NCBI GenBank assembly: GCA_026709025.1
Contig: JAPOTT010000009.1
Location: forward strand, 1-64,000
From: a bacterium
GTDB taxonomy: Bacteria; Actinomycetota; Acidimicrobiia; Acidimicrobiales; Bin134
Length of the DNA stretch: 64,000 nt
Reading direction: 5' to 3'
Shown one piece after another: positions 35,897 through 52,497 of the stretch (positions are counted from its first letter, which is position 1; each line of letters starts with the position of its first letter). Both the position numbers and the translations under genes were made by a program. The notes beneath the pieces are model-generated. The model was given only the letters and a program-made list of their open reading frames with translations. It did no database searches and was not told the DNA's origin.

Positions 35897-36031
35897 ACTA
35901 GACGGTAGAACAGGATGCACAAAGCACGCCAGCCGAGTTTTAGCACAAGTAAAGTTTTAGACCGATTGTCTCACTTATGGTGTAGAGTGGATATTGCTAT
36001 CGGCCGTTCTGTGGCCCTTTATCAAACTTTA

Positions 36032-36047
36032 GGCAACTTTGGTTGCT
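36032..36047 (+). promoter_or_regulatory. Conserved dyad before the toxin-like gene (copy 1)
   Basis: GGCAAC-TTTG-GTTGCT: a dyad with GCAAC/GTTGC arms, ending ten bases before ATG 36057 and replacing any visible Shine-Dalgarno. The same element in perfect form is found at the identical distance before the homologous gene at 44071. Likely an operator for the HTH antitoxin or a translation-control hairpin. Confidence 0.55.
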
Positions 36048-36056
36048 TCTGGCACA

Positions 36057-36308
36057 ATGGACGACTATCTCAGCAGGGCGGAAATTGCGGAGAGCGCCCG
36101 CAAGCATGGTGTGACCGATGAAGATATCAGGCACGCCCTGCGGTATCACTGGATTACTCTCAGTGCCGATGATCTTGCAGTTGTGATGCATGTTGGGCCT
36201 TCTATGACTTCTCAACCCTTGGAGATAGGTGTGCTGCACAAAAGCCATGTGAGGGTTATCATTCATGCTATGCCTGCAAGACGCAGGTTTTTGAACAAAA
36301 GGAGATGA
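36057..36308 (+). CDS. Small toxin-like protein of a putative toxin-antitoxin pair
   Basis: 83 residues. Start at ATG 36057 (MDDYLSRAEIAESARKHG), with the alternative TTG 36039 rejected because it lies inside the dyad element. Ends VIIHAMPARRRFLNKRR. The layout (SARKHGVTDEDIRHAL..., HVGPSM, VIIHAMPxRxxFL) resembles small proteins that occur in actinobacteria ahead of an HTH antitoxin and are annotated as putative toxins. It overlaps the HTH gene by four bases (ATGA). A homologous N-terminus is fused to a second HTH protein at 44071. Toxicity is inferred from context only. Confidence 0.6.
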   Translation: MDDYLSRAEIAESARKHGVTDEDIRHALRYHWITLSADDLAVVMHVGPSMTSQPLEIGVLHKSHVRVIIHAMPARRRFLNKRR

Positions 36309-36595
36309 CTGTGGAAGAGTTCAGCGAAGAGTATTTGGTTGAGAAGCTAGCCGCGTTGGAGAAGTGGGCTGATGAGGTTAAACCAGAGGAACTGAAGCCA
36401 GCTCCTTTGGAGTCTTATGCAGCTACCGCCGCTTGGGTCAATCAGTTTGATGAGGTAAATGAGGCTTTGGCGGGGGCGGTTGGTGATGCTCTTGCGCGTG
36501 GGCTTAGTTGGGTGCAGGTGGCTGATTTGCTGGGGGTGTCTGAGGAAGCAGCCCGTAAGAAGTACGAGAGCCGAGTCCTAGCGCAAACAGCCTAG
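36305..36595 (+). CDS. HTH protein, putative antitoxin/regulator
   Basis: 96 residues. The N-terminus is acidic-helical (EEYLVEKLAALEKWADEVKPEELKP split over residues 9-33), and the C-terminus contains a helix-turn-helix, LSWVQVADLLGVSEEAARKKYE. Start ATG 36305 with AGGAG directly before and a four-base overlap with the toxin-like gene. Likely binds DNA at the dyad upstream (36032-36047) and represses the pair; it may also influence drmD, which starts 40 bases downstream. Strongly similar to residues 50-144 of the fused protein at 44071. Confidence 0.65.
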   Translation: MTVEEFSEEYLVEKLAALEKWADEVKPEELKPAPLESYAATAAWVNQFDEVNEALAGAVGDALARGLSWVQVADLLGVSEEAARKKYESRVLAQTA

Positions 36596-36635
36596 TAGAG
36601 CTTGTGGAAGCAACCATGTAGCATCGGCAGTATTC

Positions 36636-39434
36636 ATGGTGGGATTAAAACAGGATTGGCGGGTTGGCATCCCTGAGCAGGGAAATCTGGTGCGGGTTCG
36701 CGACCGGTTTTGGGTGGTCGAATCGGTGATACCATCGCGCCCGCTGCCCACCAGCACCAACGGCACTAGCTCAGACACTCATCACGCGGTGCGGGTGGTG
36801 CCGGTGGACGATAAGGGGAGCCCCGATCCGCTTACCGTGTTCTGGGAACTTGAGCCTGGCACCGAAATACGCCCTCAAGCATCCCTGCCCGATCTTGCCG
36901 ACGGGCTCGACGACAGCGAAACGTTCAGCGCTTTCTTAGATGCCGTCCGCTGGGGTGCGGTGGCTGCGGCCGACCCATCCGCGTTTCAGGCACCTTTTAG
37001 GGCTGGCATCGACATCAAGGACTATCAGCTTCTGCCACTGCTCAAAGCCCTAGCCATGCCTCGAGTGAGCATGCTTATCGCCGATGATGTCGGCCTCGGC
37101 AAAACCATCGAGGCCGGGCTTATCGCTGAAGAGCTGGTGCTACGCGGCCTGGTCCGCAAGATCATGGTGGTGTGTCCGCCCAGCCTATGCGGAAAGTGGC
37201 AGCGGGAGATGCGAGACAAGTTCGGGCTCGCCTTCGAGGTGGTCAACAGGGAATATGTGGCTAAGCTGCGGCGGGAGCGGGGCGTAGGCACTAACCCATT
37301 CCGCTCCCACCCCCGGCTGATCGTGTCGTTGGAATGGCTGAAGCTGGAGCCACAGCTTAGGCGGCTAAACGAATTCCTGCCGCCTGATCCGAACGTCTAT
37401 CCCCGAGCATTTGATCTCCTCATTGTAGACGAAGCCCACTTGATCGCTCCCGCAGCATTGGGCAATTACGCCAAGCCATCGCTGCGAACTCAGGCTCTGC
37501 GGAAGTTAGCCCCGCATTTTGAGCATCGGCTCTTCCTCACCGCCACTCCCCATAACGGCTACCGTGAGTCGTTCGAGTCGCTGATGGAGACTCTCGACCC
37601 CAATCGCTTTGCCAACGGGGTGCCGGTGACAAACCAAGACCGAGACGCGGTGATGGTACGGCGGCTGAAGTCGCATCTACGCCACCTGCTGCCTGACAGC
37701 CGGGCCGACTTTCCCACTCGGCGAATCCATGCCATCGAGGTGGCCTTCGACAACGCTGAGCGGGAGATGTTCGAGCTTCTAGACCAGTATGCCGCCGCCC
37801 GCCGTTCCCACGCCTCAACACCCGCAGAAAAAGCTGCGGCCCGCTTCATCACCCTGCTGCTGAAAAAGCGCCTCCTCTCGTCTCCGGCGGCTTTCAAGCA
37901 CACGCTCGACCGCCACATCGAGACTCTAGACAGGGCCTCCTCGCACATCGCCACAGTTCATGCCGTAGAGGAAGCCGCTAGCGTGCTCGATGCCGAGGTT
38001 GACGATGACGACGCGCTCGACGAGTTAGAACAGCAAGCCTTGGCCGTAGTGGCCACTGCTTTCCCCGATACCAAGACCAGCGATCAAGAACTGCTGGCCC
38101 GACTACGATCCCGGACACTGCCGTATAGTTTGCCGAGGCAGATACTAGACCAGTTGAAGCAGCATGCCGATCACAACTGGCGTCGTCCCGATGCCAAGAC
38201 CCAGTCATTGCTTGACTGGATTGCCGAGATTTGCTTTCCGGAGGGCAGGTGGAACAACGAGCGGGTTATCGTCTTCACCGAGTACAGGGCCACGCTCAAC
38301 TACCTCCGTGAGATGCTGAGCAGCCTGCACCCCAACCGCCTGTTTATGAGCGACCGGGTTGAGGTGTTCCACGGCGGCACCAGCCAAGACGAGCGGGACC
38401 GGATCATCCGGGAGTTCAACTACGATCCAAAGGTCACCAAGGCGCGAGTACTGCTGGCCACTGATGCCGCATCCGAAGGCATCGACCTGCATGGGGCCTG
38501 CTACCGGCTGGTACATGTCGAAGTTCCGTTCAACCCCAACCGCATGGAGCAGCGCAACGGCCGGGTAGACCGCCACGGCCAGAAATCCCCCCATGTGGAC
38601 ATCTTCCACTTCACATCTCCCGCCGAAGAGAAAGACTCCATCGGTTACGATCACGCTTTCTTGCTGCGGGTTGCTCAGAAGGTGGACGAGATACGCGATG
38701 ATTTGGGTACGGTCTCATCGGTTTTGGCCGAGCGTATCGAAGCACGGATGCTACGTGACGGCGACGACAGTTTGGATTTGGAGTCCACCCTGGCTGCCCG
38801 TAGGGACAAGGCCCAAGTTGATCTAGCCAAGCTCAAGCGGGATTTCACTGAGCAGCTCAGTGATGTTCAACACCGCTACCGTGACAGCGCTAATGAGCTT
38901 AATCTGTCACCATCCAGCGTGGAACGGGCTGTTCGGGTGGGGTTGCGGATTTCCAATCAGCCTCAACCCATCCCCAAGGTCGTGCAACGACCGCAAGGCC
39001 CGGACACGGTGTTCAAGATTCCCGATCTATCCGGCACCTGGCCAGAAACGCTGGTGGGCCTTCATGACGAGGTGGCCGACAAGCGCCTATCGGCAACCTT
39101 TGATGCTCAAGTGGCCTCGGGTGACGACAACATGGCTTACCTCCACTTGGGTCATCCGCTGGTTGCCCGGTGCTTGCGCATCCTGCGGGCCCAGGTATGG
39201 GGAGCATCTGTAGACCGCACCATCCACCGGGCCGCCATCCGCTATGGCGAGGTGGATGAGCCCATTGCGATTGGCCACGCCCGCATTGTAGTTAACGGTT
39301 CCGATGGTTCAACCTTGGATGAAGTGATTGAGCCTGCCGCAGTTCGGGTGGGCGGACGCCAAGGTCGCCTCAATGTGGGTGAAACCCAAGCGGCACTGGC
39401 AGCGGCCCGCAGCAACTCCCCCCCCCGTATGTAG
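36636..39434 (+). CDS. drmD: DISARM DrmD-like SNF2 helicase, N-terminal 932 residues (frame broken at a C9 tract)
   Basis: SNF2/SWI2-type helicase with all core motifs: motif I DDVGLGKTIEAG (about residue 147), DEAH box near 264, motif III TATPHNG near 302, and motif VI QRNGRVDRHGQK near 638. DrmD is the class 1 DISARM helicase. The frame ends at 39432-39434 right after a run of nine C (39418-39426). Adding one C would continue in frame into the ORF at 39464-39835, giving one protein of about 1066 residues. As written, the C-terminal 130 residues are lost. The gene uses noticeably more GC-rich codons than the flanking loci, consistent with acquisition by transfer. Start ATG 36636, weak ribosome site. 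Confidence 0.82.
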   Translation: MVGLKQDWRVGIPEQGNLVRVRDRFWVVESVIPSRPLPTSTNGTSSDTHHAVRVVPVDDKGSPDPLTVFWELEPGTEIRPQASLPDLADGLDDSETFSAFLDAVRWGAVAAADPSAFQAPFRAGIDIKDYQLLPLLKALAMPRVSMLIADDVGLGKTIEAGLIAEELVLRGLVRKIMVVCPPSLCGKWQREMRDKFGLAFEVVNREYVAKLRRERGVGTNPFRSHPRLIVSLEWLKLEPQLRRLNEFLPPDPNVYPRAFDLLIVDEAHLIAPAALGNYAKPSLRTQALRKLAPHFEHRLFLTATPHNGYRESFESLMETLDPNRFANGVPVTNQDRDAVMVRRLKSHLRHLLPDSRADFPTRRIHAIEVAFDNAEREMFELLDQYAAARRSHASTPAEKAAARFITLLLKKRLLSSPAAFKHTLDRHIETLDRASSHIATVHAVEEAASVLDAEVDDDDALDELEQQALAVVATAFPDTKTSDQELLARLRSRTLPYSLPRQILDQLKQHADHNWRRPDAKTQSLLDWIAEICFPEGRWNNERVIVFTEYRATLNYLREMLSSLHPNRLFMSDRVEVFHGGTSQDERDRIIREFNYDPKVTKARVLLATDAASEGIDLHGACYRLVHVEVPFNPNRMEQRNGRVDRHGQKSPHVDIFHFTSPAEEKDSIGYDHAFLLRVAQKVDEIRDDLGTVSSVLAERIEARMLRDGDDSLDLESTLAARRDKAQVDLAKLKRDFTEQLSDVQHRYRDSANELNLSPSSVERAVRVGLRISNQPQPIPKVVQRPQGPDTVFKIPDLSGTWPETLVGLHDEVADKRLSATFDAQVASGDDNMAYLHLGHPLVARCLRILRAQVWGASVDRTIHRAAIRYGEVDEPIAIGHARIVVNGSDGSTLDEVIEPAAVRVGGRQGRLNVGETQAALAAARSNSPPRM
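39418..39426 (+). repeat. drmD: C9 homopolymer at the drmD frameshift point
   Basis: Nine consecutive C on the coding strand. C9 gives ...NSPPRM and stop; C10 gives ...NSPPPYVASKYVDQW and joins the downstream frame; C8 gives a stop after four more codons. This is the structure of a slipped-strand contingency locus, but a homopolymer sequencing error would look the same. Confidence 0.9.
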
Positions 39435-39463
39435 CCAGTAAGTACGTAGACCAGTGGCCGCGG

Positions 39464-39835
39464 GTGAGGTCTGCACTGGAACAGGCCCTTGCTGCCAGGG
39501 CAGAAGAAGTCCACGACCAGCGGGAACGGCGTCTCGACACCAAGCGCGGCCGGGAGGCTGATCGGCTCCGAAGCACGCTGACCGACCTCAAGGAGTCAAT
39601 TAGGCGCCGATTGGACGATCTTGAGTCTGGCGACAACAGCTTCCAGCTCGCTCTGTTCGATCATGAAGAGAGCGAGCGCTTCCAAGCCGACATCGCCGCG
39701 CTGCGTCGCAGGCTTGACGAGATCGACGACGACATAGATACAGAAATCAACAATCTCATGGCGCGCTACAAAGTGCGCGACATCCACTGGTTCCCGGTTG
39801 CGGTGGAGATAGTCGTGCCTTTAGGAGAGATCTAA
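39464..39835 (+). CDS. drmD: C-terminal fragment of DrmD (coiled coil), out of frame
   Basis: 123 residues from GTG 39464; the open frame extends back to within the poly-C tract. It is rich in charged helix with coiled-coil heptads (RERRLDTKRGREADRLRS, LRRRLDEIDDDIDTEINNLM) and ends WFPVAVEIVVPLGEI. In frame +1 relative to the upstream helicase ORF, so it is the expected tail of DrmD rather than a separate gene. It ends TAATG, overlapping the drmMI start by one base, with AGGAGA in its last codons, so drmMI translation is probably coupled to reading through this segment. Confidence 0.7.
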   Translation: MRSALEQALAARAEEVHDQRERRLDTKRGREADRLRSTLTDLKESIRRRLDDLESGDNSFQLALFDHEESERFQADIAALRRRLDEIDDDIDTEINNLMARYKVRDIHWFPVAVEIVVPLGEI

Positions 39836-42800
39836 TGGCCGTCTCTAGGCAGGTTGCCATCACCCATGAAGACTGGCTGAACCTCTGCGACCCCGAACAG
39901 CCCTGGTTCACCCTACCGGTGATTAAGCGGGCCTTTCCGCAGGGGTTGCACCCGGTGTCCAGCATAATCAGGGCCGAACACAAGGCCCGCTGGAACGAGG
40001 TCCACGACTCCGCCGACCGCAATGAGTACATCGAATGGCTGCTGCGAGAGGTACTGGGCTGGCGGGCTGACTACCGCGTCGGCGATCAGCTGCCCGAAGA
40101 CTTGGTTGCGGGGATTGCCGAACAGGGAGTGACCGTGGCACCAGAAGGGGCGTATTGCCCGGCACCTCCTTCGCCGGTGGGGGTCTTGAGCAACACCATC
40201 TCCGATGAGGTAGAACCAGACCCTCGAGTCTTGGTGTTCATCCTGCCTGCGGGTACCGATCCCGCCACCCGGCCTCGGGATGGCTGGTCGGCCACGTGGA
40301 TACAACGGGCCGCCCAGTGCTGCCGGCAGTTCAAGGCTCCGCTGGCCCTGGTCACCGACGGCGACTACCTCACGCTGGTCCACGCCAGCGACAACCATCC
40401 CACCGGCTGGGGCACATGGCGGGCCTCGGTGTTCGCCAACGAACTGGCGTTCTTGGATTCTTTTGCCTCAATGCTGGAAGCCCGGCGCTTCACCACCGTT
40501 GCTGACACTGACACCCCCGAATCGCTGCTCGTGGAGTCTGTGGGATCGCAGGCTGATGTTACCGATCAGCTTGGCGTACAGGTCCGACAGGCGGTGGAAC
40601 TGCTGGTGAACGCCATCTCCCGAGCCAACCTCGATCGCAACCAGAGTCTGCTGGAGGGAATCACACCCAAGCAGGTGTATGAGGCTGCGGTGACCGTGGT
40701 GATGCGCCTTGTGATCCTGCTGGTGGCCGAGGAGAAGAACCTCCTTCCGGTAGACGACGAGCAGTACCGCCAGCTATATGCAGTACACATTCTTCATGAG
40801 AGTTTAGAGCGAGAGCATAGCGAAAACCCTGAATCCATGGAGGCTCGTTGTACCGCTTGGCATTGCCTTTTGTCCACCGCTCGGGCGCTTTACACCGGCG
40901 TTCGCCACCATGAGCTGTCGCTTCCAGTCTATGGCAGCTCGTTGTTCGATCCCGACCGCTTCGGCTTTCTGGAGGGTCGGGCACATGGTCAGAGGTGGCG
41001 CGACGGCACCAGCACTCCCATTCAGGTAACCGACGCCGACATCTTGGCCATTCTCGATGCCCTGCTGGTGCTGCGGTTCCGCTCGGCAGCCGGGGCCACC
41101 GACACCCGCCGGCTCTCTTACCGCAATGTAGAGGTGGAGCAAGTAGGCCACGTCTATGAGAAGTTGCTTGACCCCAGCATTCTGGTGGCTGACGGCCCAG
41201 TGCTGGGTTGTGTGGGCAAGCAAGGTAATGAGCCAGAGATACCTTTGCGCGATCTGGAAACAGCCCAGATGGACGGGCGCGAGGCACTGCTCAAGTTCCT
41301 GACTGACAGCGGTGGCAAGAAATGCGGCTACTACACGGGCACCAAAAAGCAGGTTATCAAGATGTTGGACGATGCGGTTCCCGCGCAGCTACTGGCCGAA
41401 TTGCGAACTGCCTGCGGCGGCGACGCTGATCTGATGAAGCGGATCAAGCCGTATGCCAACCTGCTGCGGCTTGACCTTCGGTGCCGCCCGGTGGTGTTTT
41501 TGCCCGGCGCGGTGTACGTGACTGAGACCGGCAGCAACCGGGCCTCGGGCACGGCCTATACCACCAGAGAGCTAGCCGAGGAAGTGGCCAAGTACGCCCT
41601 TCAACCCCTCTGCTACTCGCCCGGCCCCCAAGATACTGCCGATGCCAATCAATGGCAGCTGCGCCCGTCTGATGAACTGCTGGCCCTCAAAGTATGCGAC
41701 CCGGCGGTGGGCTCAGGGGCCATCCTCGTGGCCGCTTGCCGCTATCTGGCCGACCGGGTGATCCAGGCTTGGATTGCCGAAGGCAACCTTCGAGCTCCCG
41801 AATTGGCCACCGCCGCCGACGATCCCAACTCTTTGCAAGGCAAGACGGACGCCTTGCGGCTGGTGGCCGAGAGATGCTGCTACGGCGTTGACCGCAACCC
41901 CATGACGGTAGAAATGGCCAAGCTCTCAATGTGGCTCACCACCATGGCCAAAGACCGCCCGTTCACCTTTCTGGATCACGCCATCAAATCGGGTGACAGC
42001 CTCTTGGGCATCTGGGATTTGGACCAGCTCCGCTGGCTTCATATCGACCCCGCCGCCGGCCGCCAGAGGGACCGCGCTTTTGACTGGATGGTTGGCGATC
42101 GCGATGTGCTGGAATTGCTGCAAGAGCGGTTGGACGAGGCCGCGTTGCTGCGAATGGAACTGCAAAGCCAGTCCACCGACTCAATCGGCGATGTGGACCG
42201 CAAGGCCGACCAGCATGCCCGCAGCGAGCAACTGCTCCACAGCCTGGCCGCTGCCGCCGACCTTGTTGCGGGAGCGGCTCTTGCCTCAGCCCAAGAGCAC
42301 AACCTAGCCGACGCGCTGAACCAGATCGTCGAGGCCGACCTGCCCGTGCTGCAAGACGTGCTGACCGCGCTGGACACCGCCGAAGAGCACACTGCGCTGG
42401 AAGCCGCCCGATACAGGGTGACGGCGCGGCTCAACGAAGGCCGCCCCGAGGGTGCCCTGGCCCGACAGCCTCTACACTGGCCCATCGCCTTCCCCGAGGT
42501 GTTCGTGGACGGCGGCAAGTTTGATGCCATGATCGGCAATCCACCCTTCATCGGTGGCCAGCGTCTGTCGGGTGCGTCTGGCGGTGACTATCGAGAGTTC
42601 TTGGTGCAGTGGATCGCACAAGGCGCTAAGGGCTCGGCCGATTTGGTGACCTACTTCTTCCTCTATGCCGCCAAGCAAACTCGGTCGCTGGGCTATCTGG
42701 CCACCAACACCATCGCCCAGGGCGATACCAGCGAAGTTGGTTTGGCTCAGCTGATCGACCACGGATGGACCATTCACCGAGCGGTGTCGTCGACTCCTTG

Positions 42801-43968
42801 GCCGGGCCATGCATCGTTGGAAATCGCCAAGCTCTGGATGTCGTCAACGGGCTGGCATGGGCCGAAGCATCTGGACGACCGTTGGGTTGCCGGGATAGAT
42901 GAGATGCTGTACCCCATAAGCCGGTCTAACTGGCGTAAGCAACCCCTGGCCGCTAACAAGGACCAATCATTTCAAGGATCAATCGTGCTCGGGACGGGAT
43001 TCACAATAAGCCCTGAAGAAGCACAAGCGCTTATTCAGAAAGATCCGCGCAATGAAGAGGTTCTGTTCCCATATCTCAATGGTCAAGATCTGAATCAACA
43101 CCCCGCTCATGCTGCTTCCCGCTGGGTAATAAACTTCTTCGACTGGTCTGAATCTCACGCTCGAAGTTATTCGGATTGTTTTGCGATAGTTGACGAAAAT
43201 GTACGACCTGAGCGGATGTTTAAGAAAGGCAAGCATTACGAGGCAGCCCGTCAATTTTGGTGGCAATATCTAGCTAAGAGAAAGGGATTATACAGCTCTA
43301 TCTCAGATCTAGACCGAGTTCTTATCATAGCTCGAGTCAGCAGCACAGTCATCCCAGTTTTTGTTCCAAACCGTCAAGTGTTCTCCGATGCAACTGTCGT
43401 CTTCGCTTACGACGACTTGTTTCACCTTGGCTTGCTTTCCAGCGGGTTCAATTTTCGCTGGGTTGTCAGGCACACATCGACTCTTGGGGCAGGAACCCGC
43501 TATACCCCCACCGATGTCTTCGAGACCTTCCCTCAACCAGACCACTCAGATGCCGTAACTGAAGTAGCCGAGGCCCTTGACAACCACCGTCGGCCACTAA
43601 TGGTTGCCGAACAAATTGGGCTGACCTCGCTTTATAACCGAGTCCACGATGTCGCCGACCGCAGCCCAGCCATTGAAGAGATGCGCCGCCTGCACTGTAA
43701 TCTTGATTTCGCGGTGCGTGATGCCTACGGCTGGCACGACATCGAGCTTGATCACGGGTTTTACGATGTTCGAGGTGCGGGCATCCGCTACACCTTCGCT
43801 CCTGAGGCTGCGGACGAAATCTTAGAGCGCTTGCTGGAGTTGAACCGCGACCGCTACCAAGCTGAAATCAAAGCGGGCCTCCACAGCGAAGTCAAGAAAA
43901 AGAACACCACCCCACTTGGTGGTCTATTCCAAGAGATCAACGATCAGGGCCAAGCGGCTAGCGCGTAA
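39835..43968 (+). CDS. drmMI: DISARM DrmMI-like N6-adenine DNA methyltransferase
   Basis: 1377 residues. AdoMet motif I is CDPAVGSGAILVAA (about residue 620) and catalytic motif IV is IGNPPFIGG (about 901): gamma-class, N6-adenine type, like Eco57I/PglX enzymes. Between them lies MAKLSMWLTTMAKDRPFTFLDHAIKSG in two parts, typical of the class. The C-terminal third (from about 930) resembles a target-recognition region. In class 1 DISARM it marks host DNA. Start ATG 39835 with AGGAGA six bases upstream. The rare-codon-rich, lower-GC stretch around 42.9-43.5 kb falls in the recognition region, where recombination is common. Confidence 0.85.
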   Translation: MAVSRQVAITHEDWLNLCDPEQPWFTLPVIKRAFPQGLHPVSSIIRAEHKARWNEVHDSADRNEYIEWLLREVLGWRADYRVGDQLPEDLVAGIAEQGVTVAPEGAYCPAPPSPVGVLSNTISDEVEPDPRVLVFILPAGTDPATRPRDGWSATWIQRAAQCCRQFKAPLALVTDGDYLTLVHASDNHPTGWGTWRASVFANELAFLDSFASMLEARRFTTVADTDTPESLLVESVGSQADVTDQLGVQVRQAVELLVNAISRANLDRNQSLLEGITPKQVYEAAVTVVMRLVILLVAEEKNLLPVDDEQYRQLYAVHILHESLEREHSENPESMEARCTAWHCLLSTARALYTGVRHHELSLPVYGSSLFDPDRFGFLEGRAHGQRWRDGTSTPIQVTDADILAILDALLVLRFRSAAGATDTRRLSYRNVEVEQVGHVYEKLLDPSILVADGPVLGCVGKQGNEPEIPLRDLETAQMDGREALLKFLTDSGGKKCGYYTGTKKQVIKMLDDAVPAQLLAELRTACGGDADLMKRIKPYANLLRLDLRCRPVVFLPGAVYVTETGSNRASGTAYTTRELAEEVAKYALQPLCYSPGPQDTADANQWQLRPSDELLALKVCDPAVGSGAILVAACRYLADRVIQAWIAEGNLRAPELATAADDPNSLQGKTDALRLVAERCCYGVDRNPMTVEMAKLSMWLTTMAKDRPFTFLDHAIKSGDSLLGIWDLDQLRWLHIDPAAGRQRDRAFDWMVGDRDVLELLQERLDEAALLRMELQSQSTDSIGDVDRKADQHARSEQLLHSLAAAADLVAGAALASAQEHNLADALNQIVEADLPVLQDVLTALDTAEEHTALEAARYRVTARLNEGRPEGALARQPLHWPIAFPEVFVDGGKFDAMIGNPPFIGGQRLSGASGGDYREFLVQWIAQGAKGSADLVTYFFLYAAKQTRSLGYLATNTIAQGDTSEVGLAQLIDHGWTIHRAVSSTPWPGHASLEIAKLWMSSTGWHGPKHLDDRWVAGIDEMLYPISRSNWRKQPLAANKDQSFQGSIVLGTGFTISPEEAQALIQKDPRNEEVLFPYLNGQDLNQHPAHAASRWVINFFDWSESHARSYSDCFAIVDENVRPERMFKKGKHYEAARQFWWQYLAKRKGLYSSISDLDRVLIIARVSSTVIPVFVPNRQVFSDATVVFAYDDLFHLGLLSSGFNFRWVVRHTSTLGAGTRYTPTDVFETFPQPDHSDAVTEVAEALDNHRRPLMVAEQIGLTSLYNRVHDVADRSPAIEEMRRLHCNLDFAVRDAYGWHDIELDHGFYDVRGAGIRYTFAPEAADEILERLLELNRDRYQAEIKAGLHSEVKKKNTTPLGGLFQEINDQGQAASA

Positions 43969-44045
43969 GCAGGGATACTAACTGTCACACCCTGTACCTA
44001 AAGTAAACGCGGTTATCGGTCGTCCACCGACCCCTCCTAATCTCT

Positions 44046-44061
44046 GGCAACGCTGGTTGCC
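44046..44061 (+). promoter_or_regulatory. Conserved dyad before the fused toxin/antitoxin-like gene (copy 2)
   Basis: GGCAAC-GCTG-GTTGCC, a perfect 6-bp dyad with a four-base spacer, ending ten bases before ATG 44071. Same element, spacing and position as at 36032-36047. Confidence 0.6.
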
Positions 44062-44070
44062 TAAAGCGCA

Positions 44071-44505
44071 ATGGACGAGCACCTTGAAAGAGCAGCAATC
44101 ACGCCGAGCGCCTGCAAACATGGTATTGCAGACGCAGATATACGTCATGCTTTGAAACACTATTGGGCTTTGCACTACACCAAAGACCCTGCTGTCACGA
44201 TGTATATTGGTCCTTCTATGAGCAAATACAGCGAAGAGTTCTTGGCAGAGAAGCTGGCAGCGTTTGAGAAATGGGCAGATGAGGTCAAACCTGAGGAACT
44301 TAAGCCTCTTCCGTTCGAGGACATGGGCTACATCGCCAAGTGGATAAATCAGTTTGACCATGTTAACGAGGCCATGGCTGAAGCCATTGGCGATGCGCTC
44401 TCGAGAGGCTTCACATGGTCGCAGATTGGTGACTTGCTCGGAGTTTCCGAACAGGCCGCACGCGACAAATACAGCTCCTATATCCCTGCTCAGATTCTCT
44501 CATAG
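44071..44505 (+). CDS. In-frame fusion of a toxin-like N-terminus to an HTH antitoxin-like protein
   Basis: 144 residues. Residues 1-50 (MDEHLERAAITPSACKHG ... YIGPSM) match the N-terminal half of the 36057 protein; residues 51-144 match the whole 36305 HTH protein (SEEFLAEKLAAFEKWADEV, FTWSQIGDLLGVSEQAARDKY). The toxin's C-terminal half, including its IHAMPARRRF end, is absent. The joint falls at ATGA, where the antitoxin start would be, so an internal start at ATG 44218 could still make the antitoxin alone. Placed between drmMI and drmA, it is well placed to regulate drmA-drmB. Whether the fusion is a degraded module or a recruited regulator is open. Confidence 0.7.
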   Translation: MDEHLERAAITPSACKHGIADADIRHALKHYWALHYTKDPAVTMYIGPSMSKYSEEFLAEKLAAFEKWADEVKPEELKPLPFEDMGYIAKWINQFDHVNEAMAEAIGDALSRGFTWSQIGDLLGVSEQAARDKYSSYIPAQILS

Positions 44506-44541
44506 CGCTAGGATACAGCCGAGCATCGGTCGCCAATTCAA

Positions 44542-44573
44542 GCTGTCACAGGGTGGTAGTAACCTGTGACAGC
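44542..44573 (+). promoter_or_regulatory. 11-bp perfect inverted repeat overlapping the drmA start
   Basis: GCTGTCACAGG (44542-44552) and CCTGTGACAGC (44563-44573) flank a ten-base spacer. The right arm contains the GTG start of drmA (44566). As DNA it is an operator-like site; as RNA it would hide the GTG in a stable stem. A CTGTCACA half-site also occurs near 43982, before the fusion gene. The adjacent HTH fusion protein is a candidate ligand. Confidence 0.65.
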
Positions 44574-47500
44574 AATACTTATGTCAACAATTCCTACGGT
44601 CAGCAACACCGCTTTACCTGATTGGGCTCAACAGCCAGCAGCCATTCGTAATGAGCTGGTGCGGCGGGTTAGCGCCGATCTGCTCGGCCCGCTCGACGGC
44701 GAGCACGAGGTGATCCGTGGTTATCAACGTGATGATGGCACTTGGACACAACCAGGGCGAGTAAATGATCGCTACTTGGTGGGGAAGTTAGCCCCAGTTG
44801 GAACTGTAGTCCGCGACCCAGAACGCACCGACGATCCCGGTACCGGCGACGAAGACCCAGCCCAGGGCAGCCACGACGGGCAGGTGGCGCAGAGGGTAAT
44901 GGCCCGCTCGTCGGTGGGCCTCACTGCGGTGGTGTCAGCAAGCACTGCTCAACTGTTAGCCCGCTGCCGGTGGGGGCAGTACACCCGCCAAGTCGAAGCC
45001 CATGAAGACGGCACTACCGCCAGGGTTTGGCAGCGGGAACCAATCGACCTTGAGGTCTCGATCTCCCTGCAAGTTCCTGAACAAGAAGATGCTATCGGTC
45101 CGTTACCGGTACAGGAAGCTGGAGTGGTGCTGCGAGGCCGTGTGGCATCGGCTGCGGGCGGGGAGCTGCTGATCGTCACTGTGTTTTTGTGCAACGAGCA
45201 GGAACCCGTCCTTATCAACAAAGACGAGCGCTGGTTGTTTCAAGCCAGCCTTGATCTCACCGCCCCCGACGGCGAGGCTGTGTTTCTGGGCAGAGAAGCG
45301 CTCCATGCCGCTTCAACTGTCCCTGAGTCTGAACGCAAGGAAACCGCCCAACTCGACATGAACTATCGCCACGAGGTGGAACTGGCCGTGGGTCACGGAA
45401 TCGGCGTGAACTGGGACAGCACCCTTGGTACACGCCGGGGTACCCGCGTAGGAACTGCGGTGTTGCCGCGGTACGAGGTTGGCCGCACCGAAGCCCCTGG
45501 CGTGGCTGGAACACCCCAACTCTCCGGGCTGGTAACCGACATGAGCGTGCTTGCCGAATTGGCAGTGGATGACCTGACTAGCGCCCTTGCCCCGCTGGCA
45601 GACGGCTACCGGGCCTGGCTGGAAGACGAGATCAACCACGCCGAGGGGCTGGATGATCATCGAGAGGCCGCCGAAGCAGCGCTGGCTGAAGCGAGGAACG
45701 TTGCTGATGCCATTCAAGACGGCATCACACTGCTGCAAGAGAACCCCGATGCCTTAGAAGCATTTCGATTTGCCAATCAGGCTATGTCGCGACAGCGAGT
45801 CCATACCGTGGCCGTCGGTGAGCGGCGCAACAAACCCGATTTGTCGTTGCGGGAGGCGCTTATTCAAGCGGACATTCCTGCAAACCGCTCGTGGCGACCC
45901 TTCCAGCTTGCGTTCATCTTGTTGTGCCTGCCATCGCTTACCGACCCTGCCCACCCTGAGCGTACTGGTGACACCGCGCTGGCCGACCTACTGTTTTTCC
46001 CAACCGGTGGCGGCAAGACCGAGGCGTATCTGGGATTGGTGGCCTACACCCTGGCCATGCGCCGGCTCCAGGGGGTAGTGGGCGACGGGGAAGATGCAGT
46101 AACCGGACGCGACGGCGTGGCTGTGATCATGCGCTACACGCTGCGGCTGCTCACTGCTCAGCAGTTTCAGCGAGCAGCCACGCTGATTTGTGCTGCTGAG
46201 CTCATCCGTCAACATCGAGCTGTATCTGACAGCAGATATGCAGGCGTGCCGTTCCGCTTGGGTATGTGGGTGGGCGGCGGGGTGACCCCCAATCAAGATG
46301 TTGAAGCCAAGGAATGGGTAGAGGCCCAGCGCAGCCGAAGCCGGGGGTTCAGCGGTGCTAGCACACCGCTCCAGCTCACCGAGTGCCCATGGTGCGGCTA
46401 CGCGCTTAACGGTGGCCGAGACTGCCGCTATGACGAGCCCCATCAGCGCTTTCTGGTTTTTTGTGGCGATCCTGAATGCTCGTTTACCGCCAAGCAAGCG
46501 CCGGGTGAGGGCATTCCAGTGGTGACCGTGGACTCCCAGGTGTACCGGCTACTGCCCGCGTTTGTGATCGCCACCATTGACAAATTCGCTCAGCTGCCTT
46601 GGAACGGTGCCCTAGCTACTTTGTTTGGCCGGGTTGACCAATGGTGCGAACGCCACGGCTATCGTAACCCTGATCTAGACCAGCGTCACCGGAGTCACTG
46701 GCAGGAAAGCAACAAGCACACCGCCCGTGGGGATCTGCCCGCAGCAGCCACGCTCGCCGTTTTGCCTCGGCTGCGACCTCCTGATTTGATCCTCCAAGAC
46801 GAGATGCACCTGGTAACCGGCCCTTTGGGCACGATGGCAGGGTTGTACGAAGCCGCCATCGACCGGCTGGCAACATGGACCTATGCGGGGCGAGAGGTCC
46901 GCCCCAAAGTGGTGGCATCAACTGCCACCGTGCGCCGTGCCGAACAGCAGGCTTGGGCGCTGTTCTGGCGGAAGCTGCGGGTGTTCCCACCCCCAGTGTT
47001 GGATGCCCGCCGGTCGTTCTTTGCTGAACAGATCGACCCCACCGATGAGGTGCCGGGACGGCTTTATCTCGGCATAAGCGCCCATGGAGAGCGGCTCAAA
47101 CAGGTGGAGCTGCGGGTGTTCGCCTCGCTCATGGCCGCAGCTCAAGCCATGTATGAGGAGTTGGGTGATGAGGGTGCCATGGTAGACCCTTGGATGACCA
47201 CCGTGGGCTACTTCAACGCAGTGCGAGAGTTAGCCGGAATGCGCCGTCTGGCTGAAGATTATCTTCAGTCAAAGCTGCGGCGTGCTCACTTCACCACCGG
47301 CCTAGCCGACCGCAAGCAAATTAACTTGGATGAGTTGACCTCCCGGGTCTCTTCGGAAGACATCAAGCAGGTACTCCGCCGCCTGTTCAACACATTTGAC
47401 CCCGCACAGGAGGACGAGGACCGCAACCAGCGCCCCTTAGACCTGCTACTAGCCACGAACATGGTATCGGTTGGGGTGGATGTGCCCCGGCTGGGTTCCA

Positions 47501-48246
47501 TGGTGGTGGTGGGCCAGCCCAAGGCCACCGCCGAGTACATCCAGGCCACCTCTCGGGTTGGCCGTAGCTCAGGTGGGCCTGGTCTGGTTATCACCTTGTA
47601 CAACTGGGCCCGACCGCGGGATCTGTCTCACTATGAGACCTTCGCCTATTACCACGCCACCTTCTACCGCCAGGTGGAGCCGCTGTCGGTCACGCCGTTC
47701 TCTGAACGGGCTTTGGATAAAGGGCTCACTGCTGTGCTGGTGGCCGCAATCCGCCACTGCGACACGGTGTGGAACCCTAACGACACCGCCCGCTCGCTTG
47801 AAAAAGACGACCCTCGTATCAGCGCCCACTTGGCCGCGTTGTCGGAGCGGGCCGAGGCCGTGACCGCCAACCCCACAGCAGGCCAGTTGTTGAGGAACAT
47901 GGCCCAACATCGCCTCGATGACTGGGAACGGGAAGCCTCGCTGCGACCCTCCCTCTCCTATGACGCTCGTCAGCGAGACGATGTGGCGTTGTTGAAGCGA
48001 CCCGAAACGGGAAGTTGGACGGTGCGGACCTGTCCGAACTCGCTACGCGACACTGAGTCTCAGATCAACCTGCAAATTGAAACTGTAGATCCCACTTACG
48101 AGTCGAAAAGTCAGCCCAAGATTATTCTCGGCCAACCTAAACCAGATGCCGACGAGCCCAGAGTTACCATGGTTGAAGATGATGAGGTGGATGAGTCGAT
48201 AGATGCGGCGCAGCACTTCGACGAATTTGGCAAGGCTTCCCCGTGA
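44566..48246 (+). CDS. drmA: DISARM DrmA-like helicase
   Basis: 1226 residues. Helicase motif I is FPTGGGKTEAYLG (about residue 478), the DExH-type box is LILQDEMHLVTGPLG (about 742), and the C-terminal helicase domain has IQATSRVGRS (about 990), ending in an acidic tail. This long, divergent superfamily 2 layout with DEMHL is that of DrmA, the core DISARM helicase thought to act with DrmB on incoming DNA. A Cys pair region (ECPWCGYAL, FCGDPECSF near 605-645) may bind zinc. GTG 44566 is used (GGGTGG upstream); ATG 44581 is an alternative that would lie just after the inverted repeat. Confidence 0.85.
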   Translation: MTAILMSTIPTVSNTALPDWAQQPAAIRNELVRRVSADLLGPLDGEHEVIRGYQRDDGTWTQPGRVNDRYLVGKLAPVGTVVRDPERTDDPGTGDEDPAQGSHDGQVAQRVMARSSVGLTAVVSASTAQLLARCRWGQYTRQVEAHEDGTTARVWQREPIDLEVSISLQVPEQEDAIGPLPVQEAGVVLRGRVASAAGGELLIVTVFLCNEQEPVLINKDERWLFQASLDLTAPDGEAVFLGREALHAASTVPESERKETAQLDMNYRHEVELAVGHGIGVNWDSTLGTRRGTRVGTAVLPRYEVGRTEAPGVAGTPQLSGLVTDMSVLAELAVDDLTSALAPLADGYRAWLEDEINHAEGLDDHREAAEAALAEARNVADAIQDGITLLQENPDALEAFRFANQAMSRQRVHTVAVGERRNKPDLSLREALIQADIPANRSWRPFQLAFILLCLPSLTDPAHPERTGDTALADLLFFPTGGGKTEAYLGLVAYTLAMRRLQGVVGDGEDAVTGRDGVAVIMRYTLRLLTAQQFQRAATLICAAELIRQHRAVSDSRYAGVPFRLGMWVGGGVTPNQDVEAKEWVEAQRSRSRGFSGASTPLQLTECPWCGYALNGGRDCRYDEPHQRFLVFCGDPECSFTAKQAPGEGIPVVTVDSQVYRLLPAFVIATIDKFAQLPWNGALATLFGRVDQWCERHGYRNPDLDQRHRSHWQESNKHTARGDLPAAATLAVLPRLRPPDLILQDEMHLVTGPLGTMAGLYEAAIDRLATWTYAGREVRPKVVASTATVRRAEQQAWALFWRKLRVFPPPVLDARRSFFAEQIDPTDEVPGRLYLGISAHGERLKQVELRVFASLMAAAQAMYEELGDEGAMVDPWMTTVGYFNAVRELAGMRRLAEDYLQSKLRRAHFTTGLADRKQINLDELTSRVSSEDIKQVLRRLFNTFDPAQEDEDRNQRPLDLLLATNMVSVGVDVPRLGSMVVVGQPKATAEYIQATSRVGRSSGGPGLVITLYNWARPRDLSHYETFAYYHATFYRQVEPLSVTPFSERALDKGLTAVLVAAIRHCDTVWNPNDTARSLEKDDPRISAHLAALSERAEAVTANPTAGQLLRNMAQHRLDDWEREASLRPSLSYDARQRDDVALLKRPETGSWTVRTCPNSLRDTESQINLQIETVDPTYESKSQPKIILGQPKPDADEPRVTMVEDDEVDESIDAAQHFDEFGKASP

Positions 48247-50126
48247 GCAGAAGTAGGCCAACATCAGGGCATGCACCAGAACCTACACGGATCGGTGGCT
48301 TGCGGCCTTCCCAAATGATTCACACCTTCGGCCCCGGCGCCGTGGTGGATCTTCCCTCTATGTCGGTGGTGGTGGGCGGAATCAGTGACTGGAACATCAA
48401 TGACACTGCCCTCATCGCCGAAGCTAGGTTGCTTCACAACGTCAGATCTTTGCCGTGTTGCGCCCGGGTGAGTGAGTTGCGGAGCCCACCGTGGATGGAA
48501 GAGTCGCCAAATCCTCACCAGCATTGGGCTTATGTTGGAGTACCGGTTTTCCCATTTCCTCGCTGGATGAGGTGCACAGGGTGCAGCCGGCTCGCCCCGG
48601 TGGACTATAAAGAGTTCACCTTGGAGGTGAATCGCTTCCGGCCTGACCGCTCGTATTGGTATCACGACCGGTGCCATGGCCGCAAACCCCAGGTCGTGCC
48701 CACTCGGTTCATGGTGGCCTGTGCCAATGGGCACCTCGACGACTTCCCCTGGATTGAGTACGTCCACCGGGGCGGCCCCTGCCCTGGGGGCAGCGCGATA
48801 TTGGAACTGCGAGAGGCCGGGCAAGCCAACCGGGCTGCCGATGTGCGGGTGATCTGCAAAACCTGTGGTGCCCAGCGAATGGCCCATGACGCTTTCGGAG
48901 ATCAGGCATGGCAGCACTTGCCCCAATGCCGCGGCCGCCACCCACATCTTCAGCGTTTTGACGAGGGTTGCCAGGAGTCGCCTCGGGCGCTGTTGCTAGG
49001 CGCGTCCAATACGTGGTTCTCTATTTCGCGCTCCGCGCTCACCATTCCTACCGGTGCCAATGGAGTTGACGAAATAGACCAGAAGGTCGCCGAGCGCTGG
49101 GATGATCTGCTTGATATAGAAGACCGTGTGATCCTCGACTATGTAATCAAACGCTTGCAGCGAGGCCAAGGCGAACAACAGCGCCGCTGGCTGTTGGATT
49201 ATGACTCAGATGAGATATGGGCAACCATCGAGCGACACCGCCAACAAACATCGGCAGAGTTAGAGCAAGGGGAGGAACACACCGATTTACGGGGGCCGGA
49301 ATGGCGGGCCTTTGCTGCTCCAGAGTCGTTGGAGACAGAAGACTTCAAAGTGCAGATACTCGATGTCCCCGCAGGGTTTGCCGGGCTACTAGATCAGCCC
49401 ATAGCGGTGGATCGGTTGCGAGAGGTTGTTGCGCTGTGCGGGTTCACTCGTATTGACGGCCCCGATGACGTTGGTAGGGCAGATCGAATTGCACCACTTT
49501 GGAGTGAGAACCCCACATGGCTTCCATCTGCGGAAACTCGGGGGGAAGGTTTGCTGATCCGGTTATCTGAAGCACAGGTGCAAGCATGGGAATCTGGCTA
49601 CGAGGCTAGCGATCGATACTTGAAACTCCTAGACGCTCACCATGTCTGGCGGGCTCGTCGGGGGTTGGACCCCAATCAATCCGAGCCCCGATCTCGGTTC
49701 CTGTTGCTTCACTCTCTGGCCCATCTGTTGATCCACCAGGTGGCTTTGGATTGCGGCTATTCCACCGCATCCATACGTGAACGGCTCTATAGCAGGACAC
49801 CCGACGAGGGAGACCCAATGGCCGGGGTGCTGTTGTATACCGCATCGCCCGATAGCGAGGGCACCCTGGGTGGGCTGGTAGCTCTGGTCGACCCTGAACG
49901 CCTTGCTGCCACTTTGCGTGATGCCCTCAACCGGGCAAAATTGTGTTCTACCGATCCCATCTGTGCCGACCACCGGGCCGAAGGAACCAACGACACCCTC
50001 CACCACGCGGCCTGCCACGCCTGTATGTTCGTACCCGAAACATCCTGCGAACACGGCAACCGTTACCTTGACCGCGCCACCATCGTCCCCACCCTAAGCC
50101 CCCCAAACCTCGCCTACTTCGCCTAG
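48243..50126 (+). CDS. drmB: DISARM DrmB-like DUF1998 protein
   Basis: 627 residues. N-terminal GGLRPSQMIHTFGPGAVVDLPS, a zinc-type MRCTGCSRLAPVD (about residue 108), CANGHLDDFPW (about 160), CKTCGAQRMAHDAF, then the DUF1998 core LLLHSLAHLLIHQVALDCGYSTASIRERLY split over two segments near 485-515, and CHACMFVPETSCEHGNRYLDR with further Cys/His at the end. This is the DrmB pattern: it forms a complex with DrmA. GTG start overlaps the drmA stop by four bases. In canonical DISARM the phospholipase-D gene drmC follows; here it does not. Confidence 0.87.
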   Translation: MSRSRPTSGHAPEPTRIGGLRPSQMIHTFGPGAVVDLPSMSVVVGGISDWNINDTALIAEARLLHNVRSLPCCARVSELRSPPWMEESPNPHQHWAYVGVPVFPFPRWMRCTGCSRLAPVDYKEFTLEVNRFRPDRSYWYHDRCHGRKPQVVPTRFMVACANGHLDDFPWIEYVHRGGPCPGGSAILELREAGQANRAADVRVICKTCGAQRMAHDAFGDQAWQHLPQCRGRHPHLQRFDEGCQESPRALLLGASNTWFSISRSALTIPTGANGVDEIDQKVAERWDDLLDIEDRVILDYVIKRLQRGQGEQQRRWLLDYDSDEIWATIERHRQQTSAELEQGEEHTDLRGPEWRAFAAPESLETEDFKVQILDVPAGFAGLLDQPIAVDRLREVVALCGFTRIDGPDDVGRADRIAPLWSENPTWLPSAETRGEGLLIRLSEAQVQAWESGYEASDRYLKLLDAHHVWRARRGLDPNQSEPRSRFLLLHSLAHLLIHQVALDCGYSTASIRERLYSRTPDEGDPMAGVLLYTASPDSEGTLGGLVALVDPERLAATLRDALNRAKLCSTDPICADHRAEGTNDTLHHAACHACMFVPETSCEHGNRYLDRATIVPTLSPPNLAYFA

Positions 50127-50360: not shown

Positions 50361-50501
50361 TTATGGATCAGATGGGTATGCATCCCTCATCCCGACGGGC
50401 TGCCTGACCTCTTTCTTGACCGCAGCTTGGGGCGGATACAGGTTCCAGCATTGCTGCGCCAGGCCAGTCTCCGACTCTCTTTGCTAGTTGCTTTTGTATA
50501 A
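50361..50501 (+). pseudogene. Possible remnant of a PIN-like toxin gene
   Basis: In the frame after TAG 50358 the sequence reads PDLFLDRSLGRIQVPALLRQ followed by ASLRLS. This resembles the first strand-helix of PIN-like toxin domains (FxDRSLGR-xxVPxxLRxAGLR). The similarity stops near 50475, close to the end of the opposing ATPase gene, so only about 30 residues survive. No start codon is in frame after the stop. Low confidence because the fragment is short. Confidence 0.35.
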
Positions 50502-51995
50502 ACGGTGTAGGTCTATGAGTTCTACGTCGGTGCGAGTTTTAGCGGCATTGATTAGTTTGGTGGTGAAACCTTGAGCGGAGAACAAAAGGCGCTTGGTGTT
50601 GGGCGACAGCGTGACTCCGGAGCGGCTAGCTAGCAGGCCGGTGAGCTGGTCGAGTCGTTCAAGCGCGTTGGTGTCTAGCTTGTATGTCTTTGCCTCGCCT
50701 ATCAACTGGACGGTTTTGGTCTTACCTTTTTTGGGGTCACGTTGGAGCGCCACTATGTCTAGCTCGAAGCTTTGGCGTTGGGTACGGTCGTGTATTTGCA
50801 CAGAGGCTGATGGTTCAGCCGGGCCGCCCAGAGTCACTTCCGAGGCGTAGCGATCTACCCAAAGGCGGCATAGTGCCTCGAAATGGGGGCCTACGATCTG
50901 AGATCGGTAGGTTGCCTCCGCGTTAGCCCACACCTCCAACGTTTGGCGGTCTTCTAGTTGGGCGCGGTGTCGCCGATTGATCAGATGGTGGAAGCGCACA
51001 ATCGGATCTGCCACTCTATAAACCGGTCGCTTAGCGGTTAACAGATCCTCATGTCGGACAACGAAACCGGCTGTGGTCATTACCCCTAGGTGGTGACTGA
51101 TGTCGTTGGAGGTCTTGCCCAGAGCCTCGGCAATTTTTGCCGGTGATGTCCGTCCGTCGGCTACTGCATTGAGCAGGGAATAATAGGTGGCCTCGTCGGT
51201 AACCCGAGGGTCTTCTCTCAGTAGATAGTCGTCTTCACGAAATAGAACATGGGACGGGTTCAGCAACGTAGCTGCTAGCCATTCTGGCAGATCGTCCACG
51301 CTGCTAGGAACCCCGGCATCTGCAGTTAGGTCTTTGTATCCCGCGACACCGCCAACAATGGTGTCTAACAAGAATGCTGTGTCTGGGTTTTGGATATTCC
51401 AATAGCCTTTGGCTTGGCGGTAGTCGAATGGGGACAGCGGCATGTCTAGAATCGCCCGGCCTCGCAAGGGCGATGTGCCGCTCAATAGCTGCGTCATCAC
51501 GGACATAGCCGAACCGCACAGAATAATGCTCACGGGTGCTGTCCACTTGTCGGCCAGTCCGCCAGCTGCTGTCTCGTCTATAACAGCTTGGACCGCAGAA
51601 TCCAGCTCTGGGCTGGTTTGCTGTAGGTAGGGGTACTCGTCTAACACCAAGAGCTGGGGTTGATGCCCGCTTGTCCCCAACTTATGTACTGTCTGTTGCA
51701 GGGCATCGCTCCAGTCTCGGAACGGCTGAGGCGGTGCCCACCGAAGTTGGCGGCTGAGGCTGTTGGTAAACCGGTCTAGGGCAGGTCTGCGGTCTTCCCG
51801 TAAAGCTAAGTGGTACACCCCACCAATTGACTCAACTAGGCGGCGTAACAAATAGCTTTTGCCGTAGCGGCGTCGACCATAAAGGATGCCCAATCGAAGC
51901 CCTTGGCGTGGCGCTAGCACAAAACGCGACAGGTCGTCCCATTCAACTTCCCTGTTGTAGAGGCTTGCAGGTTTTGTGAAGCTTCTCTCGGTCAT
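50484..51995 (-). CDS. AAA ATPase with winged-helix and DUF234-like C-terminal domain
   Basis: 503 residues. Walker A variant YGRRRYGKSYLLRRL, Walker B LLVLDEYPYL, sensor-like IILCGSAMSVM, then a winged-helix segment (GRTSPAKIAEALGKTSNDISHHLGVM) and a C-terminal nuclease-like region with FELDIVALQRD and QLIGEAKTYK (D...E-x-K). This is the archaeal-type ATPase/DUF234 organisation. Role unknown; such genes are found as solitary accessory loci. ATG start without a Shine-Dalgarno, 15 bases from an array of three palindromes, which its own winged-helix domain may bind. Right boundary gene of the defence island. Confidence 0.85.
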   Translation of the reverse strand: MTERSFTKPASLYNREVEWDDLSRFVLAPRQGLRLGILYGRRRYGKSYLLRRLVESIGGVYHLALREDRRPALDRFTNSLSRQLRWAPPQPFRDWSDALQQTVHKLGTSGHQPQLLVLDEYPYLQQTSPELDSAVQAVIDETAAGGLADKWTAPVSIILCGSAMSVMTQLLSGTSPLRGRAILDMPLSPFDYRQAKGYWNIQNPDTAFLLDTIVGGVAGYKDLTADAGVPSSVDDLPEWLAATLLNPSHVLFREDDYLLREDPRVTDEATYYSLLNAVADGRTSPAKIAEALGKTSNDISHHLGVMTTAGFVVRHEDLLTAKRPVYRVADPIVRFHHLINRRHRAQLEDRQTLEVWANAEATYRSQIVGPHFEALCRLWVDRYASEVTLGGPAEPSASVQIHDRTQRQSFELDIVALQRDPKKGKTKTVQLIGEAKTYKLDTNALERLDQLTGLLASRSGVTLSPNTKRLLFSAQGFTTKLINAAKTRTDVELIDLHRLYKSN

Positions 51996-52052: not shown

Positions 52053-52089
52053 GTTAGTGCCCGAGGTGCAGGCAGGACACCAGAAAGAG

Positions 52090-52180
52090 CGGAGAGGGTG
52101 GGATTCGAACCCACGAACCACCTTGCGGCAGTTACTTCCTTAGCAGGGAAGCGCCTTCAACCGGACTCGGCCACCTCTCC
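52090..52180 (-). tRNA. tRNA-Ser (anticodon GCT)
   Basis: 91 bases. Acceptor arms GGAGAGG and CCTCTCC pair fully, discriminator G. The anticodon arm is CTTCC-CTGCTAA-GGAAG giving GCT. A long variable arm (class II) and T-arm with GGTTCGAATCC are present. CCA is not encoded. Confidence 0.95.
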
Positions 52181-52309
52181 AGTTGTGTCTATTTGTGTCT
52201 ATCTTAGTCAACTGTACACGCAGTATCTCTATGGAATAACAAAGGTGGGTATTTGGCGAGACTGAAATTGCTGAGACAAGCGGTGATGGTTGGCGCTAGT
52301 GTGTTGGAT

Positions 52310-52396
52310 GGAGGGATGGCAGAGCGGACGAATGCGGCGGCCTTGAAAGCCGTAGGGCCTTTAGGGGTCCCGGGGGTTCGAATCCCCCTCCCTCCG
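52310..52396 (+). tRNA. tRNA-Ser (anticodon TGA)
   Basis: 87 bases. Acceptor arms GGAGGGA and TCCCTCC pair fully, discriminator G. Anticodon loop CTTGAAA (anticodon TGA) on a CGGC/GCCG stem, long variable arm and T-arm with GGTTCGAATCC. Lies 130 bases from the tRNA-Ser(GCT), in the opposite direction. Confidence 0.95.
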
Positions 52397-52497
52397 CACA
52401 CGAAACATCCCAACAGTTGACGCTAAAAGTATCTAAGGTGGGGTATACTATATCTAGCAAGATTTGTTGTTCTCCTAGACACCTGAAAGGCCCACCT

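What the first reader, a model, noticed from the sequence alone, without database searches (positions are those of the whole stretch)
36057..50126. Class 1 DISARM-like locus without drmC and with toxin/HTH modules built in
Seen: SNF2 helicase (DEAH, motif VI), gamma-class N6-adenine methylase (NPPF), long SF2 helicase with DEMHL, and a DUF1998 protein, in the order drmD, drmMI, drmA, drmB. Known: class 1 DISARM has these plus the core phospholipase-D gene drmC. Here no PLD-like HxK frame follows drmB; instead gene remnants and an opposing ATPase are found. Uniquely, a toxin/HTH pair precedes drmD and a fused copy splits drmMI from drmA. This could be a regulated DISARM variant in which a toxin or HTH protein replaces drmC or controls expression.
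Basis: partly seen in the sequence, partly recalled or inferred. Interest (0 to 1): 0.85.

Follow-up and report, generated by a model that had tools for sequence, protein, structure and literature searches.

The report
DISARM wired to toxin-antitoxin promoter cassettes
In a sponge-type Acidimicrobiia bacterium, a known anti-phage system (class 1 DISARM, without its optional nuclease drmC) carries a toxin-antitoxin cassette with a DNA-damage-type promoter in front of each half of its operon, which suggests the defence is switched on by damage and tied to the antitoxin, although this copy has a frameshift in one gene.

Summary
The DISARM genes are real: drmD, drmMI, drmA and drmB match PADLOC models strongly. 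No drmC exists in the window or genome. The small genes are not generic. They are a RelS-RelI toxin-antitoxin pair (published June 2026, PDB 9sdc). Copy 1 keeps the catalytic residues; copy 2 is a truncated toxin fused in frame to RelI. Same-genus relatives carry the pair at the same drmMI/drmA junction, so it is not a random neighbour. Each copy brings a recA-like (PafBC/RecA-NDp type) promoter and a palindromic candidate RelI operator. In the whole genome that operator occurs only at these two sites and once inside a coding gene. TA-less DISARM relatives have neither element. This supports "controls expression" and argues against "replaces drmC": drmC is also missing from five TA-less relatives, was lost at least twice, and is reported as dispensable and often absent.

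Eight of ten drmC-less loci have a broken drm gene, against 0 of 7 with drmC. The "remnants" after drmB are a decayed DUF433/PIN toxin-antitoxin pair. Verdict: a new regulatory variant of a known system, possibly off here. Regulation is inferred from sequence, not tested.

The parts
35966..35988 (+). Promoter-like element TTGTCTCACTTATGGTGTAGAGT (RecA-NDp/PafBC type) upstream of relSI copy 1
   Evidence: same architecture precedes recA in this genome
36002..36016 (.). Inverted repeat 1, GGCCG-n5-TGGCC
36032..36047 (.). Candidate RelI operator GGCAACTTTGGTTGCT
36057..36308 (+). RelS-like toxin, copy 1 (83 aa); K9, H10, H64 and R69 equivalents kept
   Evidence: RelS residues from PMC13284704
36305..36595 (+). 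RelI-like HTH antitoxin, copy 1 (96 aa), overlapping the end of relS
36636..39434 (+). drmD, SNF2 helicase, 932 aa, C-terminus cut off by a frameshift
39418..39426 (+). Run of 9 C at the drmD frameshift; the only C/G run of 7 or more in the window
39464..39835 (+). Out-of-frame C-terminal remainder of drmD
   Evidence: dN/dS 0.17
39835..43968 (+). drmMI, N6-adenine methyltransferase (type IIG/MmeI-like), 1377 aa
43982..44004 (+). Promoter-like element CTGTCACACCCTGTACCTAAAGT upstream of copy 2
44018..44032 (.). Inverted repeat 1, GGTCG-n5-CGACC
44046..44061 (.). Candidate RelI operator GGCAACGCTGGTTGCC (perfect palindrome)
44071..44505 (+). Copy 2: N-terminal half of RelS (C-terminal active-site half missing) fused in frame to RelI, 144 aa
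   Evidence: RelI part dN/dS 0.035 against L057
44543..44565 (+). Further promoter-like element CTGTCACAGGGTGGTAGTAACCT just before drmA
44566..48246 (+). drmA, YprA-family SF2 helicase (an ATG lies at 44581)
48243..50126 (+). drmB (MZB zinc-binding/DUF1998-type), 627 aa
50127..50483 (+). Decayed HTH_66/DUF433 + PIN_10 toxin-antitoxin pair, in pieces in different frames
50484..51995 (-). Convergent ATPase (ATPase_2 + ArsR-type HTH), neighbour; homologue on the same side in L052

Best explanation
This is a class 1 DISARM that lost drmC and gained a RelS-RelI toxin-antitoxin cassette between drmMI and drmA (shared by the genus clade) and, in this genome, a second copy before drmD. The cassette is: promoter, inverted repeat, RelI operator, relS, relI. 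Proposed mechanism: RelI (or the RelS-RelI complex) binds the palindrome and holds both half-operons low; DNA damage or phage replication activates the PafBC-type promoter and drives relSI together with drmD-drmMI and with drmA-drmB. Copy 2 has lost its toxin and would act only as regulator or antidote. Shown by computation: gene identities, absence of drmC, conserved cassette position, conserved palindrome and recA-like promoter, drmD frameshift. Inferred: RelI binding, damage induction, control of the drm genes. In this genome DrmD lacks its C-terminus, so the system may be off or weakened.
For: Both proteins match the solved RelS-RelI complex 9sdc (E 4e-7 and 9e-6). HTH relatives of 59% identity or more lie only in DISARM loci among the 16 genomes searched. 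The TA-bearing loci form one clade in the drmA tree, 100/100. A GTCAAC-n4-GTTGAC-type palindrome sits at the same place, 64-66 nt upstream of a fixed point in relS, in 14 of 15 close RelSI loci; the sites read GGCARC where RelI has LGVSE instead of LGVSK/R. Genome-wide the GGCAAC form occurs at both copies plus once inside a gene. The promoter element has the architecture of that of recA in 4 of 4 genomes and of the published tTGTCRgtg-8nt-TannnT consensus apart from GTG (PMC5656591); it was found twice in 457,148 strand-bases of TA-less loci and, in its looser form, at none of their drmD/drmA upstream regions. The genome has exactly two WYL genes, in tandem, as expected of pafBC. The fused copy lost the toxin yet keeps operator and RelI.
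Against: For M. tuberculosis RelSI the authors found no evidence of DNA binding and no upstream inverted repeats (PMC13284704). All substitutions in the repeats of the DISARM-linked copies remain G-U compatible, so an RNA hairpin is not excluded. L050 has the operator but no promoter match. The operator/helix change may be a single event. Most TA-bearing loci have broken drm genes, which fits a dying system as well as a regulated one.
Confidence: 0.55

Rival explanations
1. RelSI is an addiction module that settled in a decaying defence locus. It persists because losing it is toxic, while drmC and other drm genes erode; it has no role in regulating DISARM.
For: All five TA-bearing genomes have a damaged drm gene (frameshift, IS insertion in drmMI, or large deletions) while relI stays intact; drmC-less loci are broken in 8 of 10 cases against 0 of 7 with drmC (Fisher p 0.002, not corrected for kinship). 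Free-standing RelSI pairs are common in the class. A second, unrelated TA pair also sits after drmB.
Against: drm genes show dN/dS 0.07-0.17, so decay is recent. The fused copy has no usable toxin yet keeps operator, promoter and RelI. The copies sit at the two operon heads of this locus.
Confidence: 0.3
2. RelSI is a guard: when a phage shuts off DISARM or the host, RelI is lost and RelS cleaves 16S rRNA to abort infection.
For: Copy 1 RelS keeps the key residues; RelS cleaves 16S rRNA in its characterised relative (PMC13284704).
Against: No sequence evidence links toxin release to DISARM failure. One of two copies has lost the toxin. DISARM lesions in relatives coexist with intact relS.
Confidence: 0.1
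3. The toxin or HTH protein has taken over the job of drmC.
For: All TA-bearing loci lack drmC.
Against: drmC is also absent from five TA-less relatives (G055, G060, G063, G064, G068) and was lost at least twice. RelS is a RelE/BrnT-type RNase, DrmC a PLD-type nuclease. DrmC is reported as dispensable and often missing (PMC9142583).
Confidence: 0.03
4. The drmD frameshift is a reversible poly-C phase-variation switch (compatible with the best explanation).
For: The break lies in a 9-C run, the only C/G run of 7 or more in 64 kb, and the downstream drmD codons are still conserved.
Against: No relative has the tract. A Markov model expects about one such run per 64 kb. A sequencing or assembly error or a simple mutation would look the same.
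Confidence: 0.12

Closest known systems
DISARM class 1 (drmD, drmMI, drmA, drmB, drmC)
   Same: Same genes, same order, high-scoring models.
   Different: No drmC, TA cassettes before drmD and before drmA, drmD frameshifted.
RelS-RelI toxin-antitoxin system (M. tuberculosis Rv2663-Rv2664, PDB 9sdc)
   Same: Toxin-first pair, homologous toxin and HTH antitoxin, key toxin residues kept.
   Different: Sits inside DISARM, has a conserved upstream palindrome and damage-type promoter; the second copy is a truncated toxin fused to RelI.
PafBC / RecA-NDp promoters of actinobacteria
   Same: TTGTC/CTGTC, fixed spacing and TAnnnT, as in the local recA promoter.
   Different: CAC or CAG replaces GTG; control by PafBC here is not tested.
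ARMADA type II (GajB-like helicase fused to a RelE-like toxin domain; PMC12458937)
   Same: Also pairs a DISARM-related operon with a RelE-superfamily toxin; relative L050 has a GajB/UvrD-like helicase next to relS.
   Different: Here drmA and drmB are separate genes matching DISARM models and the toxin is a stand-alone TA partner.

Membership tests
DISARM class 1 | drmA helicase and drmB (DUF1998-type) as adjacent separate genes | tested here: met
   PADLOC 943 and 248 bits
DISARM class 1 | drmD and drmMI upstream | tested here: met
   1024 and 1489 bits; drmD is frameshifted
DISARM class 1 | drmC phospholipase-D-type nuclease | tested here: not met
   Absent from window and genome. The literature calls it non-essential and often missing (PMC9142583), so I describe the locus as a drmC-less DISARM variant
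DISARM class 1 | protects against phage | not testable with these tools
   needs an experiment
RelS-RelI TA | toxin homologous to RelS with K9, H10, H64, R69 | tested here: met
   profile E 4e-7, residues aligned; met for copy 1, not for fused copy 2
RelS-RelI TA | HTH antitoxin homologous to RelI, downstream of relS | tested here: met
   E 9e-6
RelS-RelI TA | toxicity and neutralisation | not testable with these tools
   needs an experiment
PafBC-controlled promoter | tTGTCRgtg-8nt-TannnT | tested here: inconclusive
   matches except GTG; the same architecture precedes recA in four genomes
PafBC-controlled promoter | pafB-pafC pair in the genome | tested here: met
   two tandem WYL genes; orthology to pafBC is assumed

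The most novel reading that the evidence does not exclude
A portable cassette (damage-inducible promoter + antitoxin operator + RelS-RelI) has been wired twice into DISARM, turning it into a damage-induced defence whose two half-operons are co-repressed by one antitoxin pool, with the toxin as back-up and one copy reduced to a pure regulator.
Probability: 0.4. Interest if true: 0.68.

Novelty: new variant of a known kind. Interest (0 to 1): 0.52.

Why it matters
How DISARM is regulated is largely unknown, and the published model assumes constitutive expression (PMC9142583). A DNA-damage promoter plus an antitoxin operator in front of both DISARM halves would be a concrete, testable control circuit. 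It would also show RelI, described in 2026 without evidence of DNA binding, acting as an operator-binding regulator. The link between drmC loss and broken drm genes warns against counting drmC-less loci as working systems.

Tried and rejected
drmC replaced by the TA pair: rejected because TA-less relatives also lack drmC. A hidden drmC in the remnant after drmB: rejected; it is a DUF433/PIN pair. The first DrmC search, with model PDLC02586, found nothing anywhere and was uninformative; it was repeated with PDLC02585, which rings in relatives. Pfam and NCBIfam gave no family for the toxin above cut-off; only profile search against solved structures did. An RNA-hairpin reading of the repeats is possible but not preferred, since several free-standing RelSI loci have an ATTGAC arm that does not pair fully. 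Assembly error as the cause of the large deletions: unlikely where junction overlaps are only 5-12 bp, but not excluded. Papers describing RelSI with DISARM, or phase-variable DISARM, were not found in the held library.

Full report
What is there. The window lies in contig C49 of a 2.2 Mb, 96%-complete genome. The related loci are mostly Acidimicrobiia metagenome-assembled genomes; that they come from sponges is my reading of the sample names. PADLOC models confirm drmD, drmMI, drmA and drmB in this order. Pfam gives SNF2/Helicase_C, Eco57I/MmeI methylase and target-recognition domains, Helicase_C and the MZB zinc-binding domain.

drmC. The best DrmC model finds nothing in this genome at E 1e-3, while it finds full-length matches in relatives directly after drmB. 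It is absent from DISARM of all five TA-bearing genomes (G000, G004, G009, G019, G021) and of TA-less G055, G060, G063, G064 and G068, the last with an 83-residue remnant; the few weak matches in some of these genomes lie elsewhere and cover about a quarter of the model or less. The drmA tree needs at least two changes. The literature describes DrmC as non-essential and often missing (PMC9142583). Absence of drmC is therefore neither unique nor tied to the toxin pair.

The small genes. Profiles of the toxin and HTH proteins match the two chains of PDB 9sdc, RelS and RelI (E 4e-7 and 9e-6), a toxin-antitoxin pair reported in June 2026 in which RelS cleaves 16S rRNA in the anti-Shine-Dalgarno region (PMC13284704). 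Copy 1 keeps the equivalents of K9, H10, H64 and R69. Copy 2 keeps K and H but lacks the C-terminal half, and is joined in frame to RelI. dN/dS of relS and relI is 0.03-0.26 where it can be estimated.

Association with DISARM. In four other same-genus genomes the pair lies between drmMI and drmA or directly before drmA: L050 (G019), L052 (G004), L057 (G009) and L021/L112 (G021). In the 16 genomes searched, RelI relatives of 59% identity or more occur only in DISARM loci. L052 has a further relI after drmB. The copy before drmD is seen only in this window. Across the class, RelI-like matches are common (84 of 296 genomes), but the 29 loci inspected outside this clade have no drm gene within about 1.5 kb. 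The TA-bearing DISARM loci are one clade (100/100).

Control elements. Upstream of relS lies a palindrome, GTCAAC-n4-GTTGAC in most close RelSI loci and GGCAAC/GGCAGC-n4-GTTGCC/T in the window and in L021. It sits 64-66 nt upstream of a fixed point in relS in 14 of 15 such loci. Loci with GGCARC have E in the RelI helix (LGVSE) where the others have K or R (LGVSK/R). This may be a single coordinated change, so it is suggestive only. In the whole genome GGCAACNNNNGTTGCY occurs at the two cassettes and once inside a coding gene. Before it, at 35966 and 43982, and again at 44543 just before drmA, is [CT]TGTCNCA-n9-TAnnnT. An element of the same architecture precedes recA in G000, G004, G019 and G021. 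It resembles the RecA-NDp/PafBC consensus tTGTCRgtg-8nt-TannnT (PMC5656591), with a different GTG part. The genome has two tandem WYL genes, as expected of pafBC. Promoter element and palindrome were not found before drmD or drmA of TA-less relatives.

Integrity. drmD breaks frame at a 9-C run; its last codons continue in another frame. Twelve relatives have no break at this point, and none has the tract. A run of this length is expected about once per 64 kb, so the tract alone is no proof of phase variation, and a sequencing error cannot be excluded. Among 10 drmC-less loci, 8 carry a lesion in drmD, drmMI, drmA or drmB (frameshifts, deletions, an IS-like transposase in drmMI of G019); none of 7 complete drmC-bearing loci does (Fisher p 0.002, not corrected for kinship). 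dN/dS of 0.07-0.17 shows that the drm genes were under selection until recently.

Interpretation. The best account is a DISARM variant with a TA-derived control cassette at the head of each half-operon, possibly damage-induced, with one cassette reduced to RelI. The main rival is an addiction module in a decaying locus. The two are not exclusive. No regulation, toxicity or defence has been measured here.

Noticed in passing
L016:13683-15116 (-) and L050:1-137: In G019 drmMI is interrupted near codon 91 by an IS-like transposase (family by my reading of the translation).
   Followed up: partly
L018/L121, L009/L120, L052, L056, L057, L112: Large internal deletions in DISARM genes; junction overlaps in L057, L018 and L052 are about 5-12 bp.
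   Followed up: partly
L050:4165-6093: GajB/UvrD-like helicase between drmMI and relS in G019, reminiscent of ARMADA type II gene content.
   Followed up: no
L130:1294-1740: Another truncated RelS fused in frame to RelI, in a different family of the same order, with the GTCAAC palindrome kept.
   Followed up: partly
L051:598-1759: Intact HTH_66/DUF433 + PIN_10 pair directly after drmB in G021, the counterpart of the remnant in the window.
   Followed up: yes
L060:724-1089: PemK/MazF-type toxin gene a few hundred bases after drmB in drmC-less G055.
   Followed up: no
window 34549-35838 and 50484-51995: Two ATPases (AAA_14+DUF4143; ATPase_2+ArsR-type HTH) flank the island; two tRNA-Ser genes lie at 52089-52397.
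   Followed up: no
window 59477: A fourth promoter-like element of the same pattern, CTGTCACAGGTGTGAAGTACTGT, outside the island.
   Followed up: no
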